Source of the DNA: Thermosynechococcaceae cyanobacterium Okahandja
Lineage (GTDB): Bacteria; Cyanobacteriota; Cyanobacteriia; Thermosynechococcales; Thermosynechococcaceae
DNA: 64,000 nucleotides
NCBI GenBank assembly: GCA_041530395.1
Contig: CP136945.1
Coordinates: 2,666,001-2,730,000 of the forward strand
Direction: 5' to 3'
The notes below the pieces were generated by a model. That model ran no database searches, was not told the origin of the DNA, and saw only the letters and a list, made by a program, of their open reading frames with translations. Shown here piece by piece: positions 28,099-33,289 of this stretch. Made by a program: the position numbers and the translations under genes. The first letter of the stretch is position 1. The number at the start of each line of letters is the position of its first letter.

Positions 28099-30504
28099 TT
28101 ATTGAAATTCTTTTGCAATTTCCGTAGCGGGTAAATGCCCGGTGCAGTACCAGAGAATCGTATGGGGAGCTTCGAGGTAGGGTTCTTGACGTGCCTGCAT
28201 CACGTTAATCTCCTCCCGCATCCAGCGCACAACCGCCGCATCAAGATAGGGGCTAATGGGAATATCGAAGGCCTTCATGAGGGCAAGCCCGCGGTAAAAA
28301 TCGACGGCATCCTTTTCAGCCTGAGCCTTTGCCACTAGCTCTTTCAGGATTTGCACCGGTAAGGGATGTTTAGGGGCAATCCGGTGCAAGGCTTCTACTG
28401 CTGACAGTAAGGTATCCGTATCGTAAATCTGGTGTTGAATGAGGGTTTCTAGGGTGTGAATGGCACTTGGGTGACCGGGATGGACTAAGCCAAGGGTACG
28501 GCAGACCGCTACCCGATGGGAATGGATTGTTGCCCAGTCTAGGAAGCGCAGGAGTCGCGCCTCCACCTCCCACAGGCGAGCCTCTAGGTAGCACAGACAA
28601 CGGCTAGCCGCAATGACATCCTCCAGTGACGAGGAGCCTTGCAGGATGCCCAGGGCAATGTTGGTTGCCCGTTGAGTGAAGGGTTCTCCCGCTAACCCTA
28701 AAGCAGTTGCCGCCACAAGGCGGAGGCGATTGACCTCCTGCGTGTTGTTGGCCAGTCTATCTAGGTATTGCCTGAGGGTGTCCCCCTCGGTACTGCTCCA
28801 AGCAAGGTCTAACAGGGGGGGTGACACCTGTGCAAGGAACTGGTGTAGTTGTTCTAGGAATTTTTGCTTTAGTTCGCTGTCCAGCTTCTTGGACGATAAT
28901 GCCTGTACAAAGGCTTCTAAGGCTTGTTGCAGGTGAGCTTCGCTGGGCTGCTGCTGCATGATTAGCATCGCGGCATGGGTACTGTGCAGTCCCTGCCGTT
29001 GATTAACCAAGGCTTGGAGGAACGGGATCAGCCGCTGCGCGGGCACGTTCGTTAAGGCTGCTTCAGCATCCAGTTGCAAAGCGGCAAAGAAAAACGGCAA
29101 CTGCGGTGTCTCTTCAAAGCCACCAAAGGTGCGAAGCACACCACAGGCCCAGTGGACAATATTTTTCAGGGACTGTTGGTACTGCTCGAGTTCAACAGGC
29201 CTTCTCCTGGCAAGAAAAAGAATTAAATCCCGTTGTAAGGGTGGAGCCGTTGGGTAGTCAAAGGGATGACGTTCGGTGACTGAGAATTCTTGTTGTGCTT
29301 GCTCAAGTTGTAATCGGCACCAGAACAGGAGTTGGGGAAGTGGCGGCGGTGGTGTCTCCTGTTGCAGAACAGTTGGGGCTGTACGATTGGCCTTTTTGAG
29401 GTATTCCCACGTCAGCGGTCGAGCTTGGGGATGGCGACAAATTAAGGGCAACGAAGCGGCGCCGGGTAAGTGTTCCTCAACGTGAAAGAGTTCCCGCAAC
29501 TGCGATCGCGCCCGGGCTACCGCCGTATAGAGATCTGCGCCCCCATGGAAATTGCGCAGAAAATACTGCAAAAACTGTTGAGCGACACAGTCAGGAATAA
29601 CCTGCCTCATGCCGATAACGTAGGGAACCCCCAGTTGCACCAACTGTTGCGCAATGCCAATACTCTCACAGGAGTTAAAAATGGCTAACTGTAATCCCCG
29701 CTGGGCGGCGTACTGAAGCGTGCTACGGATCTGGTGAATCCCTAGGGGGCAGTTCACGTCAATGGTGCCCTCTTTGCTGTGGCCGGCATAGAACAAGATG
29801 TCCCATGGTTCCTGCCACAGGGCAATCAATTCTTCGGGGGTGGGGGCACTCAAGCAGTGGAGTTCTACGTCGGGTAACGCCTGCAACGCCGCGAAATCAG
29901 CATTGAGATTGAGTCCGCGCTCTTGCCCCAAAATGGCTAAGATGCGGATAGCTGAGTTCGGGCGACTGGGACTGTGTAGCGGGTGATAGAAGCGGGGCAT
30001 GAACACCACCTCAAGATCAAGGTGACGGCGAAAGCCCAGCCACTCGTGCCATGGGTAATACCACAGTTCAATCGTGGGGGTTTGGAGAAACAGATGCCGT
30101 GACTCGCCAAAGGGATTAAACACATAGTTGCCTAGGCCAAAGCACGAGGAATTGGCATCCCCATGGTTTGACAGGTCATTGACCCGGGTCTGGTTAAGCC
30201 AGTTTTGCAGACTCTCGACAAATGTCTGGTACTTTGCTCTTAACTCTTTCAGAAGGTGCGGTGGTGGACTGGAAATATTGGTAATTTGTTGACCCACCGA
30301 TCCCAAGCGGGGGGTTTGGGTGCACTCCCGATAGGCACTTACCCATGCGTCATAGGTTGCCTGTACCCTCTCAAGGGGCTGGAAGACCACCGGAAACACG
30401 CCTTGGGCATCCGGTTGATGGTCTAAACCCAGCAGTAGGCGGCCTTCAAAACTCTGGTGAAGTGGCGGGAGGGCACCGAGTTCCAGACAGACTTGCTGCA
30501 TCAT
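28099..30504 (-). CDS. CHAT-domain (caspase-like) protein with C-terminal helical repeats
   Basis: An 801-residue protein. Residues of about 185-370 form a CHAT protease domain of the caspase/HetF class, with His242 (FYAGHS) and Cys279 (FNSCES) as the catalytic pair. LPGAASLPLICRHP follows near its end. Residues 1-180 are an alpha/beta region without a known match. Residues 390-800 are almost entirely helical and look like HEAT/ARM- or TPR-like repeats, a platform for sensing or substrate binding. The start (ATG 30504) is 38 bases from the DUF1822 gene, so both lie on one transcript, headed by the sigma-factor gene. CHAT proteases cut specific protein partners; a target inside this cluster is a reasonable guess only. 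Confidence 0.85.
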   Translation of the reverse strand: MMQQVCLELGALPPLHQSFEGRLLLGLDHQPDAQGVFPVVFQPLERVQATYDAWVSAYRECTQTPRLGSVGQQITNISSPPPHLLKELRAKYQTFVESLQNWLNQTRVNDLSNHGDANSSCFGLGNYVFNPFGESRHLFLQTPTIELWYYPWHEWLGFRRHLDLEVVFMPRFYHPLHSPSRPNSAIRILAILGQERGLNLNADFAALQALPDVELHCLSAPTPEELIALWQEPWDILFYAGHSKEGTIDVNCPLGIHQIRSTLQYAAQRGLQLAIFNSCESIGIAQQLVQLGVPYVIGMRQVIPDCVAQQFLQYFLRNFHGGADLYTAVARARSQLRELFHVEEHLPGAASLPLICRHPQARPLTWEYLKKANRTAPTVLQQETPPPPLPQLLFWCRLQLEQAQQEFSVTERHPFDYPTAPPLQRDLILFLARRRPVELEQYQQSLKNIVHWACGVLRTFGGFEETPQLPFFFAALQLDAEAALTNVPAQRLIPFLQALVNQRQGLHSTHAAMLIMQQQPSEAHLQQALEAFVQALSSKKLDSELKQKFLEQLHQFLAQVSPPLLDLAWSSTEGDTLRQYLDRLANNTQEVNRLRLVAATALGLAGEPFTQRATNIALGILQGSSSLEDVIAASRCLCYLEARLWEVEARLLRFLDWATIHSHRVAVCRTLGLVHPGHPSAIHTLETLIQHQIYDTDTLLSAVEALHRIAPKHPLPVQILKELVAKAQAEKDAVDFYRGLALMKAFDIPISPYLDAAVVRWMREEINVMQARQEPYLEAPHTILWYCTGHLPATEIAKEFQ

Positions 30505-30542
30505 GGCGATCGCAGGGAGAGTAAACAGGGGGAAGCGTGTTG

Positions 30543-31949
30543 TTACACAACAAAACTCTCTGCAATTTTAGCACTGCCATACTCAAGGACGATGCCAAAG
30601 CTTTCGCCGATGTCTCCCCAGAATTTGTACTGCACAACCTGATCTTCAGCACGGCTGGTTAAGCGGGCAAAACAATCCCCCGTTTCGGTCACAATACTTA
30701 AATTCAAGCCCGCAGGCAGAAACGTATCGGGACTAAAGGGGGTAACCCGCACAAAGAGGTGGGCTGTGGTGGCATCCCGCGGTAGGATTGCCATCGTCAG
30801 CGCCAGAGGGATGCCGGCCATCTCCACCCCCAGATCAACTTTGCGCACTTTCCACGCCCCCGCGCTGGGATCCGTGTCATTGATCTCGTGCAGTAACTCA
30901 GCGGCTTGCCAACGAATATCTTCATTGGGTGGCTGGCTGATCAAGGATTTGAGAATGGCTTGCCTTTCGGCAGCGTTAGGCATTGCCCGAATCTGCCGCA
31001 ACTGCTCAACGGCGGCGATCGCCTCACGGACACTCGGGTCAACACTATCACCGTTTTTGAGCTGCGGATCTGCCGATCGCACGTATCCCCACCACCCCTT
31101 GGGGCACAGGGCCGCCGTTAACTCCTGCCAGAGGGGCGTTAACTCCTGCCAGAGGGGTTGGAGGCTATCGCGGATGGCGTATTCGCGTGCCCGTAACCAC
31201 AATCCCAGCCGGTGCGGATGACAGGCCAAGAAAAGGGTTAGGCGGTGTTGGGGCTGACTCATCAACTGTGCCCACTCGTCAAGGGGCAGCACCAAGCGCG
31301 GCAAAAGGATCTCACCGCTGGCAATGCGTTGGATGACCTCTGCCGAGACCAACTTCGGTTCTGCTAGGGGTAAAGACTGCGGTTGCCGCTCTGGCAAGAC
31401 TAGCAGTAGCCCCACATCTTCCACCATTTGGTCGCGCTCAATCGTGTAGGTGCGCAGGAGCGGGTCGTAGGTGTCCCGGGCAACCTCCCTAGCACAGGCA
31501 TAGCCCCAGAGCTTGATCTCAAGTGACTCTTCGTGGGGCAACACCTGCACACCCATGAAATAATCTGGCCGCCATGCTGGAATATCCACCCATTCGCGCG
31601 GCACCAGCCATTCCTCTAAGCTGGCAACCTCTTCCGGCAAAATGACCAGCCGACCAAAGGGAGTATCAAGGGCGGTACCGTTGATAAATTCCCAAAAGAG
31701 GGGCAGTTCTAGCTCATCGACCGGAGTGATTGGCCGTGCCTCGAGGCCCATGTCCCGTAGCCACTGTTTGGCCGCAATGTAGGCCAAGGCATTGAGGTGT
31801 ACCCGACCCCGACAGTGGGGACGCGCGGCGGCACTGACCCGCTCAATCCACCGGCGATCGCCTGCATCGCACGCTGAAAGGTCTATTTCGACGTGTTCTA
31901 TCAACGGCACGTTTGGCAAAAAGCGGAATGAAGTCGATTGGAATGTCAT
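30543..31949 (-). CDS. DUF1822 family protein
   Basis: A 468-residue soluble protein of the cyanobacterial DUF1822 family. Recognised parts are the N-terminal HLNALAYIAAKQWLRDMGLEA block and the C-terminal segment running from MAGIPLALTMAILPRDA to FWGDIGESFGIVLEYG. Between these are an alpha/beta middle and a helical part (about 255-330). An exact 21-base tandem duplication (31117-31157) doubles the seven residues LTPLWQE. No function is known for the family; members are often found next to CHAT proteins and sigma-like factors. That context, repeated here, suggests a regulatory or substrate role. The start is 29 bases from the 9-bp repeat cluster. Confidence 0.8.
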   Translation of the reverse strand: MTFQSTSFRFLPNVPLIEHVEIDLSACDAGDRRWIERVSAAARPHCRGRVHLNALAYIAAKQWLRDMGLEARPITPVDELELPLFWEFINGTALDTPFGRLVILPEEVASLEEWLVPREWVDIPAWRPDYFMGVQVLPHEESLEIKLWGYACAREVARDTYDPLLRTYTIERDQMVEDVGLLLVLPERQPQSLPLAEPKLVSAEVIQRIASGEILLPRLVLPLDEWAQLMSQPQHRLTLFLACHPHRLGLWLRAREYAIRDSLQPLWQELTPLWQELTAALCPKGWWGYVRSADPQLKNGDSVDPSVREAIAAVEQLRQIRAMPNAAERQAILKSLISQPPNEDIRWQAAELLHEINDTDPSAGAWKVRKVDLGVEMAGIPLALTMAILPRDATTAHLFVRVTPFSPDTFLPAGLNLSIVTETGDCFARLTSRAEDQVVQYKFWGDIGESFGIVLEYGSAKIAESFVV

Positions 31950-31977
31950 GGTCTGTCACCTAAAATCAGTGTTTGCA

Positions 31978-32032
31978 GTGTCAAGTGTCAATAGTGTCAA
32001 TAGTGTCAATGGTGTCAATGGTGTCAATGGTG
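31978..32032. repeat. 9-bp tandem direct repeats between sigma-factor and DUF1822 genes
   Basis: Five full copies of GTGTCAAT(A/G) run from 31985 to 32029, flanked by partial copies (GTGTCAA at 31978 and GTGT at 32030). On the coding (minus) strand each unit contains TTGACA, the sigma-70 -35 consensus, at a 9-base period, immediately upstream of the DUF1822 start. No good -10 is at the proper distance. It may be a regulator-binding array, or simply a slippage product. Confidence 0.85.
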
Positions 32033-32050
32033 TATTCAGCAAGAGGCCTC

Positions 32051-33214
32051 TTAGGAACGCAACGGTGCGAACTGACAACAGGATGAAGGGGGGTGCTGGT
32101 TGGGGAAAGAGCCATAGTACTCCTGTAACCATAAATGGACGAAGGCACCCATCTCCTTAAGGGATGCACGATCGGGATATTGCTGCCCAAAGCCGTCCAA
32201 CAATGCCCGCACAAGGGAGGCTCGCATCTTTGTAAGAGTACGGGACACCTTAGTTTGGCTCAGTCCAAGCTGTTTGGCAATAACTTTGTGGCTCACATGC
32301 TCGCAATAGTGCAGGCAGACAATGCGGCGGCTGGTGTCATTAAGGTTAGACAGGGCCGCGGCAAGAAGGCTGTTAAGCTGCTGCGACTGCGCCCATTCCT
32401 CTTCGGCTAGCAACGCTTCCCACGGCGTTGGCATTGAACCGGCAACTTCTTCGATATCTTTATCTTCTGGATTTGGGAAGTGCACCACCTCTGGGGAATT
32501 GTACTGCCGCAGGGCTTGAATGGCCACATTGAGGTATTCCTCAATATCATCTGTCGTCAGCGGCGGCGATTGGGGGTGGCACTGGCGATAGGTGCGGCTC
32601 AACTGAGCGAATGTGTGGACATCCGGTGCTGTGGAGCCAGTGGTGAGGTCTTGCCAGCACTTGACCAGAAAGCGAATTAGCGTTGATTCCCTCTGGGCGT
32701 AACCAGAATAGGCCAAGGCTTCCCGCAGTCGTTTCTGGCTAGCGCTACGCAATAGTCCCCAATCCGATTGGCGTGCACCATAGCAAACCTCGTACACACG
32801 GTCGTAGAGCCGCATGTAACAAAAGCCTGAGAGGTTGCATTTTTGCGGGTCGAACCTGCTGAGTGTCTTAGGCAAGTCCGACATCAGGATGTTGCAGGCG
32901 GTTTGGAAAAAATCCTGCTGGTTGTAAACAGAACTAAAGCGAGTATGAGTTAGTTTCTGTGCCACCTGCCACAGACTCTCTTGCAGGTAGCAGCAGAGCG
33001 CCCGCTGCCAGTACTGGTTGTCGGGATACTGCTGGGGGTTGGTTTGTAACTGGCGCACCAACTTCAGTGCCGTTGTATGGGGACAACTGAAGTCATATTC
33101 CTTGTACTGTAGATAGCGTTTGATCTCGAGATCGCGATACCAGCGGGGGCGATCGTTGTCGCCAAACAGAATCATCGTAAATAGTTGCTCATCGTCAGAA
33201 CGTCTTGGATGCAT
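32051..33214 (-). CDS. Sigma-70 family RNA polymerase sigma factor (atypical)
   Basis: A 387-residue protein from the ATG at 33214, chosen for its upstream AAGGGGG; the longer frame starts at 33283. The C-terminal part holds a clear region 4 helix-turn-helix (LNDTSRRIVCLHYCEHVSHKVIAKQLGLSQTKVSRTLTKM). The region-2-like part is at about residues 85-150 (YNQQDFFQTACNILMSDLPKTLSRFDPQ...FCYMRLYDRVYEV). A long linker separates them. It is longer and more divergent than ordinary ECF factors, resembling the sigma-like proteins encoded with CHAT/DUF1822 genes in cyanobacteria. First gene of the cluster; an exact 14-bp tandem repeat lies 48-75 bases upstream. Confidence 0.85.
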   Translation of the reverse strand: MHPRRSDDEQLFTMILFGDNDRPRWYRDLEIKRYLQYKEYDFSCPHTTALKLVRQLQTNPQQYPDNQYWQRALCCYLQESLWQVAQKLTHTRFSSVYNQQDFFQTACNILMSDLPKTLSRFDPQKCNLSGFCYMRLYDRVYEVCYGARQSDWGLLRSASQKRLREALAYSGYAQRESTLIRFLVKCWQDLTTGSTAPDVHTFAQLSRTYRQCHPQSPPLTTDDIEEYLNVAIQALRQYNSPEVVHFPNPEDKDIEEVAGSMPTPWEALLAEEEWAQSQQLNSLLAAALSNLNDTSRRIVCLHYCEHVSHKVIAKQLGLSQTKVSRTLTKMRASLVRALLDGFGQQYPDRASLKEMGAFVHLWLQEYYGSFPNQHPPSSCCQFAPLRS

Positions 33215-33261
33215 GAACTGCCCCCTTTCCTCATTGTTCAAGACTTGAATCAGCGAAACCA

Positions 33262-33289
33262 CCGTACAATTTAGACCGTACAATTTAGA
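33262..33289. repeat. Exact 14-bp tandem repeat upstream of the sigma-factor gene
   Basis: CCGTACAATTTAGA occurs twice, perfectly and head to tail (33262-33275 and 33276-33289). On the coding strand each copy reads TCTAAATTGTACGG. The pair lies in the divergent spacer between the sigma-factor and M16-like genes, where an operator or promoter would sit. Confidence 0.9.

What the first reader, a model, noticed from the sequence alone, without database searches (positions are those of the whole stretch)
28099..33214. Sigma factor - DUF1822 - CHAT protease cluster: possible protease-controlled transcription module
Three same-strand genes in close order encode an atypical sigma-70-like factor, a DUF1822 protein and an 801-residue CHAT protein with an intact His242/Cys279 pair and a long helical-repeat C-terminus. 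In the type III-E CRISPR system a CHAT protease (Csx29) cleaves an adaptor (Csx30) that otherwise holds an RpoE-like sigma factor. The three parts here match that logic (protease, candidate adaptor/anti-sigma, sigma) without any CRISPR. My proposal is that the helical repeats sense a signal, the CHAT domain cuts DUF1822, and the freed sigma factor acts on its own promoters. The family neighbourhood is, as far as I recall, recurrent in cyanobacteria; the mechanism is not established.
Basis: partly seen in the sequence, partly recalled or inferred. Interest (0 to 1): 0.85.

Follow-up and report, generated by a model that had tools for sequence, protein, structure and literature searches.

The report
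Sensor-protease operon controlling a sigma factor
Three neighbouring cyanobacterial genes (a sigma factor, a DUF1822 protein and a CHAT protease with a helical-repeat sensor) belong to a widespread signalling unit in which the protease probably switches on the sigma factor by acting on DUF1822; the gene set had already been noticed in print, but how it works is untested.

Summary
On the minus strand the window carries a sigma-70-type factor, a DUF1822 protein and a CHAT protease (H242/C279 present, HEAT-like C-terminus). The unit is real: in 103 cyanobacterial loci, 101 of 107 DUF1822 frames have a sigma gene close upstream and 56 of 107 the same CHAT type close downstream (same strand, within 1.5 kb); from the CHAT side 26 of 30, from the sigma side 19 of 20 are next to DUF1822. 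DUF1822 and its sigma co-diverge. CHAT is the changeable part: its catalytic half is constant while its C-terminus is CHASE2, a ligand-binding domain, TPR, WD40, nSTAND or (window) HEAT-like, as in a receptor-protease. New here: one Arg is conserved in 93 of 103 DUF1822 proteins inside an otherwise variable hinge, a candidate cleavage site. The triad itself was reported in 2021 (Kaur et al., EACC2-caspase / ECF sigma / DUF1822), with a different mechanism proposed. The sigma-DUF1822 link is well supported; cleavage of DUF1822 by CHAT is plausible but unproved. Against it: a DUF1822 clade without neighbouring CHAT keeps the Arg, and two genomes have sigma-DUF1822 but no such CHAT was found.

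The parts
32051..33214 (-). long sigma-70-type factor (start ATG 33214; frame open to TTG 33283)
   Evidence: TIGR02937 5.6e-19; 26 of 26 rows of alignment A2, window included, match TIGR02937; family profile matches SigA region 2 and SigF/FliA region 4 in solved structures
32789..32995 (-). sigma region 2 (approximate)
   Evidence: start of the TIGR02937 match; profile positions 82-148 match SigA/RpoS region 2
32219..32365 (-). sigma region 4 helix-turn-helix
   Evidence: Pfam Sigma70_r4_2, residues 307-355 of P0003
30543..31949 (-). DUF1822 protein, 468 aa
   Evidence: PF08852 5.9e-62
31107..31949 (-). DUF1822 N-terminal part (residues 1-281), proposed sigma-facing part
   Evidence: on the tree of the part before the last 125 residues the sigma class changes once; boundary from the alignment and a low-confidence model
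30834..31106 (-). DUF1822 hinge (residues 282-372), variable length in the family
   Evidence: 32-129 aa between W267 and L384 in 104 proteins
31077..31079 (-). Arg291 (YVR-S), the window's likely form of the conserved hinge Arg; the automatic alignment placed Lys298 there
   Evidence: column: R 93, K 5 of 103; the assignment to Arg291 is by eye
30546..30833 (-). DUF1822 C-terminal beta-rich domain (residues 373-468), proposed CHAT-facing part
   Evidence: two types; type A 0 of 30 next to CHAT, type B 54 of 75, one change on the tree; strands in a low-confidence model
28099..30504 (-). CHAT protease, 801 aa
   Evidence: PF12770 1.9e-12; 26 of 30 loci found with its N-terminal profile, window included, have DUF1822 just upstream
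29779..29781 (-). catalytic His242
   Evidence: conserved in 52 of 52 testable linked CHATs
29668..29670 (-). catalytic Cys279
   Evidence: conserved in 52 of 52 testable linked CHATs
28102..29175 (-). helical (HEAT-like) repeat C-terminus of the CHAT protein, residues 444-801, likely sensor
   Evidence: HEAT_2, below cut-off, in the same-genus relative
31984..32033 (-). 9-bp tandem repeat (TTGACACTA-like) between sigma and DUF1822 genes
33261..33289 (-). two tandem 14-bp copies just before the sigma gene, the only two in the genome at up to one mismatch; possible operator

Best explanation
The three genes are one signalling operon. DUF1822 is the dedicated partner of the sigma factor and keeps it inactive (anti-sigma or adaptor). 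The CHAT protein is a receptor-protease: its C-terminal part (HEAT-like repeats here, CHASE2 or a ligand-binding domain elsewhere) senses a signal and its CHAT domain then cuts DUF1822, most likely at the conserved Arg in the hinge between its N-terminal and C-terminal domains, so that the sigma factor is set free and starts transcription. Shown by computation: the unit, its conservation, sigma-DUF1822 co-divergence, the kept dyad, the swapped sensor domains, the isolated conserved hinge Arg. Inferred: contact, inhibition, cleavage, cleavage site, signal and target genes. My own step-wise odds: functional unit 0.97; DUF1822 acts directly on the sigma factor 0.75; CHAT cleaves DUF1822 0.5; at the hinge Arg 0.35.
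For: Sigma gene upstream of DUF1822 within 1.5 kb in 101 of 107 cases (median gap 26 bp), CHAT downstream in 56 of 107 (median 33 bp); from the sigma side 19 of 20 family members have DUF1822 next door, from the CHAT side 26 of 30. In the genus, sigma and DUF1822 are found in the same 6 of 11 genomes. SIGL and DUF1822 distances correlate at r 0.903 in 64 of the 67 pairs (3 short ones dropped); swapping partners within genomes lowers it (mean 0.726, max 0.887, 0 of 1000). On the tree of the DUF1822 N-terminal part (104 of 107 proteins) sigma class changes once, CHAT adjacency 14 times. CHAT dyad kept in 52 of 52. Of 55 linked CHATs 30 carry CHASE2 and 11 Peripla_BP_6. The hinge Arg (R 93, K 5 of 103) is the only column with 80% or more identity between W267 and L384; in six re-alignments of shuffled hinges the best column reached 40% and was Leu each time. 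In four loci the gene after sigma-DUF1822 is another peptidase: caspase C14 (L071), TPR-CHAT (L063, L119), trypsin-like (L104). Precedents in other systems: Csx29 cuts Csx30, an inhibitor of CASP-sigma (PMC10028731, passages); HetF can cleave PatU3 (PMC12288457, passages).
Against: Linkage and co-divergence do not prove contact: genes inherited as one operon co-diverge anyway. 48 of 107 DUF1822 genes have a sigma (42 long, 6 short) but no CHAT of this type close by, and of 20 genomes of the class with a sigma match two, G054 and G078, showed no CHAT of this type (G054 none at 1e-10; G078 best 8e-25). In most CHAT-less loci the next gene is unrelated. The hinge Arg is also kept in 28 of 30 DUF1822 proteins of the CHAT-less clade, G054 and G078 included, so it may be structural. 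A second hinge column holds Arg in 64 of 104. In the window itself the aligner put Lys298 in the main column; Arg291 is my reading. The long sigma also has a conserved Arg (R259, 58 of 64) between regions 2 and 4. CHAT-DUF1822 co-divergence is weaker overall (r 0.622 in 52 of 56 pairs, 34 of 1000 shuffles as high); in the 22 long-sigma CHAT pairs r is 0.909 but the swap test has almost nothing to swap (4 members; 482 of 1000). Csx29 does not cut after Arg (recalled). The DUF1822 model is too poor (pLDDT 41) to test an interface.
Confidence: 0.5

Rival explanations
1. The published reading (Kaur et al. 2021): the EACC2-caspase/CHAT protein activates itself by autoproteolysis when its variable C-terminus senses a stimulus; the sigma factor gives a transcriptional response. 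In my extension of it DUF1822 is a scaffold that is not cut.
For: Section 9 of PMC8195603, read whole; variable C-termini confirmed here; DUF1822 not always beside CHAT.
Against: It leaves unexplained why DUF1822, not CHAT, is the sigma's constant partner and why one Arg is held in a variable hinge of DUF1822.
Confidence: 0.2
2. CHAT acts on the sigma factor itself (pro-sigma processing), with DUF1822 presenting it; or DUF1822 is a positive cofactor needed by the sigma factor.
For: The long sigma has about 70 residues before region 2 (counted from ATG) and a long region 2-4 spacer with conserved R259 (58 of 64); DUF1822 nearly always accompanies the sigma factor.
Against: R259 lies among other conserved positions (P220, Y232), unlike the isolated hinge Arg of DUF1822; a gene directly downstream of a sigma gene is the usual place of an anti-sigma gene (general knowledge).
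Confidence: 0.15
3. Switching by binding only: DUF1822 is an anti-sigma factor, the CHAT protein binds it away without cutting, or cuts unrelated proteins.
For: Sigma-DUF1822 units without this CHAT close by are common (48 of 107).
Against: The catalytic dyad is kept in 52 of 52 linked CHATs.
Confidence: 0.12
4. Chance neighbours or housekeeping genes without joint function.
For: The system is absent or broken in 7 of 11 species of the genus.
Against: Reciprocal adjacency over 69 genomes; all three genes present or absent together in the genus apart from CHAT remnants, and two or three of them damaged together in G309 and G314.
Confidence: 0.02

Closest known systems
EACC2-caspase / ECF sigma / DUF1822 neighbourhoods (Kaur et al. 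2021, eLife 10:e70394, PMC8195603)
   Same: Same three components, constant N-terminal peptidase module and variable C-terminus.
   Different: Known only from gene neighbourhoods; that paper proposes autopeptidase activation and calls DUF1822 a TPR protein, whereas the fold of the window's DUF1822 was not resolved here (low-confidence model: mixed helix and strand with a beta-rich C-terminus). HEAT-like sensor in the window.
Type III-E CRISPR CASP: Csx29 - Csx30 - CASP-sigma (PMC10028731)
   Same: CHAT protease, third protein, sigma factor; proteolysis of a sigma inhibitor.
   Different: No CRISPR array in window 20000-42000; DUF1822 profile finds no solved chain up to E 5; here the CHAT domain is N-terminal with the repeats C-terminal, in Csx29 the TPR part comes first (recalled).
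HetF - PatU3 - HetZ in Anabaena (PMC8406250, PMC12288457)
   Same: Cyanobacterial CHAT protease that can remove an inhibitor of a transcription regulator.
   Different: No sigma factor or DUF1822 in that pathway as described in the passages seen; window CHAT scores 33.2 bits against the HetF cut-off of 1200.
RseA/DegS and RsiW regulated proteolysis of anti-sigma factors
   Same: Protease relieves a sigma factor of its inhibitor.
   Different: Unrelated protease and inhibitor families; here the sensor is commonly fused to the protease (comparison partly recalled, partly).

Membership tests
EACC2-caspase / ECF sigma / DUF1822 system | ECF-type sigma and DUF1822 genes beside the peptidase gene | tested here: met
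EACC2-caspase / ECF sigma / DUF1822 system | caspase-fold peptidase domain with His-Cys dyad | tested here: met
   PF12770 1.9e-12; dyad 52 of 52
EACC2-caspase / ECF sigma / DUF1822 system | constant N-terminal alpha+beta EACC2 domain | tested here: inconclusive
   about 185 residues before the CHAT core align across 55 proteins with W102, P151, W152 nearly invariant, but no EACC2 profile was at hand to name the domain
EACC2-caspase / ECF sigma / DUF1822 system | highly variable C-terminus | tested here: met
   CHASE2 30, Peripla_BP_6 11, TPR_2 5, WD40 2, nSTAND1 2 of 55; HEAT-like in the window
Type III-E CRISPR CASP | CRISPR array and Cas7-11 next to the protease | tested here: not met
   no spaced direct repeats in window 20000-42000; the four flanking proteins scanned are ispH, CCB1, M16 peptidase and a CxxCxxCC protein; no Cas7-11 profile was run over the window
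Type III-E CRISPR CASP | third protein is Csx30 | tested here: inconclusive
   DUF1822 profile matches no PDB chain up to E 5; sequence comparison only
HetF | score above the NCBIfam HetF cut-off | tested here: not met
   33.2 bits against 1200
Sigma-70 factor | regions 2 and 4 | tested here: met
   TIGR02937 above cut-off; profile matches to both regions
Anti-sigma factor (DUF1822) | binds and inhibits its sigma factor | not testable with these tools
   position downstream of sigma, 101 of 107, is suggestive only

The most novel reading that the evidence does not exclude
Cyanobacteria use a large family of one-step receptor-proteases: a ligand-binding, membrane or repeat sensor fused to a CHAT protease cuts a universal adaptor, DUF1822, after one conserved hinge Arg, and so frees a dedicated sigma factor; sensors are exchanged while the DUF1822-sigma core stays fixed in two ancient lineages.
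Probability: 0.38. Interest if true: 0.85.

Novelty: new member of a known kind. Interest (0 to 1): 0.6.

Why it matters
If right, this would be a widespread route from an outside signal to transcription in cyanobacteria that uses neither kinases nor the usual membrane anti-sigma factors, and a CRISPR-free counterpart of the type III-E protease pathway. It would give a role to DUF1822, a family of unknown function, and to many CHASE2-CHAT proteins. The hinge Arg and the CHAT dyad make the idea directly testable by single substitutions.

Tried and rejected
Structure models: DUF1822 (three-sequence alignment) reached only pLDDT 41 and was not searched against fold libraries; CHAT (no alignment) reached 44, so only its helical C-terminus was read. 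The VIA list shows only chains that match the repeat part; no CHAT or Csx29 row is among the 50 shown, which says nothing about the N-terminal half. The genome-contig scan with the single DUF1822 sequence gave two loci only; a viral-contig scan gave no relative. I considered that the tandem 14-mer before the sigma gene marks a regulon: it occurs nowhere else in the genome at up to one mismatch, and it is not seen in the upstream stretches of five relatives aligned. I considered the in-frame sigma-DUF1822 fusion of G309 as a natural fusion that would hint at contact; rejected, because it lacks the DUF1822 N-terminal half and part of the sigma, and its CHAT is broken too, so it looks like a decaying copy. 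Fisher p 7e-13 for C-domain type against CHAT is not counted as strong evidence, since type A is one clade. DNA between sigma and DUF1822 was not tested for function. Residue-level covariation between sigma and DUF1822 was not tried: too few pairs.

Bias to keep in mind: the 107 DUF1822 frames come from 60 regions mostly from the upper half of the list and 40 chosen for genus spread (69 genomes in all with the window and the two loci); one search lists only its best matches, and weaker ones were fetched only as short loci. Some frames are split or partial and are counted as found. The list holds two or more copies from many genomes. The 20 members on the sigma side are those of the 30 fetched loci that match the long-sigma profile at 1e-30 or better, my cut; the other 10 match it at 4e-21 or weaker, mainly at the region-4 end, and none of them has DUF1822 next door. 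The short sigma class is called sigma from its profile (RpoE 1.5e-4), from 10 of 31 members matching TIGR02937 and from one NCBI annotation; it is less certain than the long class. The three counts of adjacency share loci and are not independent.
Full report
What is there. The window lies in a single-contig cyanobacterial genome of 2.82 Mb. The nearest named sign is a small plasmid record of Thermosynechococcus sp. PP45 with a DUF1822 gene 48% identical over about half of the query, and same-genus genomes are 2.1-2.7 Mb, so a Thermosynechococcus-like organism is likely; this is inference. On the minus strand a sigma-type gene (ATG 33214 to 32051), a DUF1822 gene (31949-30543) and a CHAT gene (30504-28099) follow each other with gaps of 101 and 38 bp. 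Family searches confirm all three; PADLOC shows only weak helix-turn-helix-type matches for the sigma and none for the other two. Neighbours are an M16-type peptidase gene on the other strand, CCB1, ispH and a CxxCxxCC protein. The genome has one DUF1822 and six CHAT proteins, of which this one is the weakest Pfam match.

Is the grouping real? DUF1822 was matched in 188 of 292 genomes of the phylum (E up to 0.001; 177 over the family's cut-off). I fetched 100 regions around DUF1822 matches and, with the window and two loci, searched 103 loci from 69 genomes with profiles grown from the window proteins (for the number of genomes). They hold 107 DUF1822 frames, a few of them split or partial. 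101 of 107 have a sigma gene upstream on the same strand within 1.5 kb: 67 of the window's long class and 34 of a short class of mostly about 215-265 aa. 56 of 107 have a CHAT protein of the window's type downstream within 1.5 kb: 25 with the long sigma, 28 with the short, 3 with none. 42 have the long sigma only, 6 the short only, 3 neither. Gaps are small: 80 of 101 sigma gaps and 40 of 56 CHAT gaps are 100 bp or less, medians 26 and 33 bp; 18 and 4 overlap by the frames as called. Seen from the other sides: of the 30 loci fetched by a long-sigma search in 117 genomes, 20 match the long-sigma profile at 1e-30 or better and 19 of these 20 have DUF1822 next door (not L188); the other 10 match weakly, mainly at the region-4 end, and have none. 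Of 30 loci fetched by a search with the CHAT N-terminal profile, best match of each genome, 26 have DUF1822 directly upstream (without: L211, L214, L215, L222). Both lists include the window, and many loci are the same ones seen from another gene, so the three counts are not independent samples.

The sigma factor. All 26 long sigmas in the alignment match TIGR02937; their profile matches SigF and FliA region 4 and SigA/RpoS region 2 in solved structures. NCBI leaves such a gene as hypothetical in Anabaena cylindrica pANACY.04 (ANACY_RS29980; long-sigma profile 8.9e-69), where it precedes DUF1822 and a CHASE2-CHAT gene. The short class is less sure: its profile matches RpoE of 2q1z at 1.5e-4, 10 of 31 members match TIGR02937, two of three members scanned against Pfam gave nothing, and one, upstream of DUF1822 in Planktothrix pseudagardhii, is annotated as a sigma-70 factor.

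The protease. H242 and C279 are kept in 52 of 52 linked CHATs that have the region; 3 of 55 are split frames. The N-terminal half is constant (W102, P151, W152 nearly invariant over 55). Of 55, 51 match the Pfam CHAT model; the C-terminus changes: CHASE2 in 30, Peripla_BP_6 in 11, TPR_2 in 5, WD40 in 2, nSTAND1 in 2. In the window it is a helical repeat: the model is poor overall (pLDDT 44), best over residues 681-750 (73-83), and residues 444-801 align with PP2A scaffold, alphaRep and other HEAT/ARM proteins at Z 9-12; such Z values are common for repeats, so this says HEAT-like and no more. Receptor domains fused to a protease are what a sensor should look like. In four loci without this CHAT type the next gene is another peptidase: caspase C14 with nSTAND1 (L071), TPR-CHAT (L063, L119), trypsin-like (L104); L054 and L062 look like L063 by eye. 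In most such loci it is unrelated.

DUF1822 as the sigma's partner. In 64 of the 67 long-sigma pairs (short frames dropped) the protein distances of sigma and DUF1822 correlate at 0.903; swapping partners among paralogues of one genome (13 genomes, 31 members) gives mean 0.726 and never reaches it in 1000 trials. For 32 of 34 short-sigma pairs r is 0.649 (2 of 1000). For 52 of 56 CHAT pairs it is 0.622 (34 of 1000); within the 22 long-sigma CHAT pairs r is 0.909, but only 4 members can be swapped and the test has no power (482 of 1000). On a quick tree of DUF1822 without its last 125 residues (104 of 107 proteins, 258 columns) the sigma class changes once, CHAT adjacency 14 times, and the C-domain type once. 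So the core is DUF1822 plus sigma; CHAT comes and goes beside it. The C-domain comes in two types: type A (30 proteins, one clade, support 99) never lies beside this CHAT, type B does in 54 of 75 (two short frames not typed). That fits a CHAT-facing C-domain, but it is a single event.

A candidate cut site. Between W267 (104 of 104) and conserved L384 lies a hinge of 32-129 residues. In an alignment of 104 DUF1822 proteins only one column there reaches 80% identity: Arg in 93 and Lys in 5 of 103. Before the 93 Arg stand Phe 39, Ala 18, Met 14; after it Ser 53, Gly 13. When the hinges are shuffled and re-aligned six times, the best column reaches 40% at most and is Leu each time; in the real set the second-best column is also Arg, at 64 of 104. 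Caspase-fold proteases such as metacaspases and separase cut after basic residues (recalled). Against a simple reading: type A proteins keep the Arg in 28 of 30, including those of G054 and G078, the two of 20 class genomes with a sigma match in which no CHAT of this type was found; so it is either cut by other proteases or structural. In the window the aligner placed Lys298 in the column; the neighbouring YVR-S (Arg291) looks like the motif by eye. The sigma factor has a conserved Arg of its own (R259, 58 of 64) between regions 2 and 4.

Within the genus. Of 11 genomes the same 6 have DUF1822 and sigma matches. The triad appears whole in four (window, G089, G247, G310; open frames), and is damaged in two: G309, with sigma joined in frame to the DUF1822 C-terminal half and a CHAT frame that ends after 443 codons with a further in-frame stop beyond; and G314, with CHAT in pieces and DUF1822 cut short. 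CHAT scraps remain in G315 and G313, marginal traces in G312 and G179, none in G311. The three genes are 38-46% identical between the window and G247, where neighbours CCB1 and the M16-type peptidase are 73-76%, and in the other species they lie away from CCB1. So the unit is dispensable, fast-changing and kept or lost together.

What is known. In the held library DUF1822 appears in two papers and EACC2 in one relevant paper of three. Kaur et al. 2021 (section 9 read whole; other passages) already report EACC2-caspase genes with an ECF sigma and a DUF1822 neighbour in the majority of TRADD-N-independent cases, and propose autopeptidase activation and transcription regulation through the sigma factor. 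The triad is therefore not new. Searches for CHAT domain with sigma factor and cyanobacteria (one paper, unrelated by its passages), CHASE2 with CHAT domain and cyanobacteria (15 of 21 listed) and CHAT, caspase, ECF sigma factor and cyanobacteria (15 of 42 listed) showed no listed paper that by title or start of abstract tests it; the library lacks most subscription papers and bioRxiv. The type III-E case (PMC10028731, passages) shows that a CHAT protease can cut an inhibitor of a sigma factor, and that the inhibitor's N-terminal domain binds the sigma while the cut lies in its C-terminal domain; HetF, which can cleave PatU3 (PMC12288457, passages), shows similar logic in cyanobacteria. The window protein is not HetF (33.2 against a cut-off of 1200 bits), and the DUF1822 profile matches no solved chain up to E 5.

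Verdict. The locus is a HEAT-sensor member of a published, untested kind. The new points are the reciprocal counts, the sigma-DUF1822 co-divergence, the tally of swapped sensors, the repeated loss in the genus and the isolated hinge Arg.

Noticed in passing
window 31984-32033: Nine-bp tandem repeat with TTGACAC in each unit, 5.6 copies, between sigma and DUF1822 genes.
   Followed up: no
window 33261-33289: Two tandem copies of a 14-mer just upstream of the sigma start; the only two in the genome at up to one mismatch.
   Followed up: partly
window 31116-31157: Perfect 21-bp tandem duplication inside the DUF1822 gene, doubling seven residues (PLWQELT) near W267.
   Followed up: no
L142, L144-L150, L152-L159, L162 (family f31 genomes): In 17 genomes of about 1.7-2.3 Mb of another class the DUF1822 model matches by its N-terminal part; in the three frames printed (L147, L153, L162) a long acidic repetitive tail follows, and no sigma or CHAT of this kind was found in these short loci. 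An older use of the domain?
   Followed up: partly
L264 7237-8724 (G309): Sigma gene joined in frame to the C-terminal half of DUF1822, beside a broken CHAT gene: a decaying copy.
   Followed up: partly
L232 (NZ_CP130345.1): A 2333-bp circular record called a plasmid of Thermosynechococcus sp. PP45 holds a shortened DUF1822 gene as its only listed gene.
   Followed up: no
L165 (G179), L168 (G247): A second, weak DUF1822-like match below the cut-off in 268-aa frames of two same-genus genomes, elsewhere than the triad; perhaps a distant relative.
   Followed up: no
L071, L104, L119, L063: The gene after sigma-DUF1822 is another peptidase type (caspase C14-nSTAND1, trypsin-like, TPR-CHAT): protease replacement would fit the cleavage idea, but most CHAT-less loci have unrelated genes there.
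   Followed up: partly
L042, L043, L044, L048, L049, L052, L065: In the CHAT-less type A clade the gene after DUF1822 is often one conserved Gfo/Idh-like oxidoreductase (by eye).
   Followed up: no
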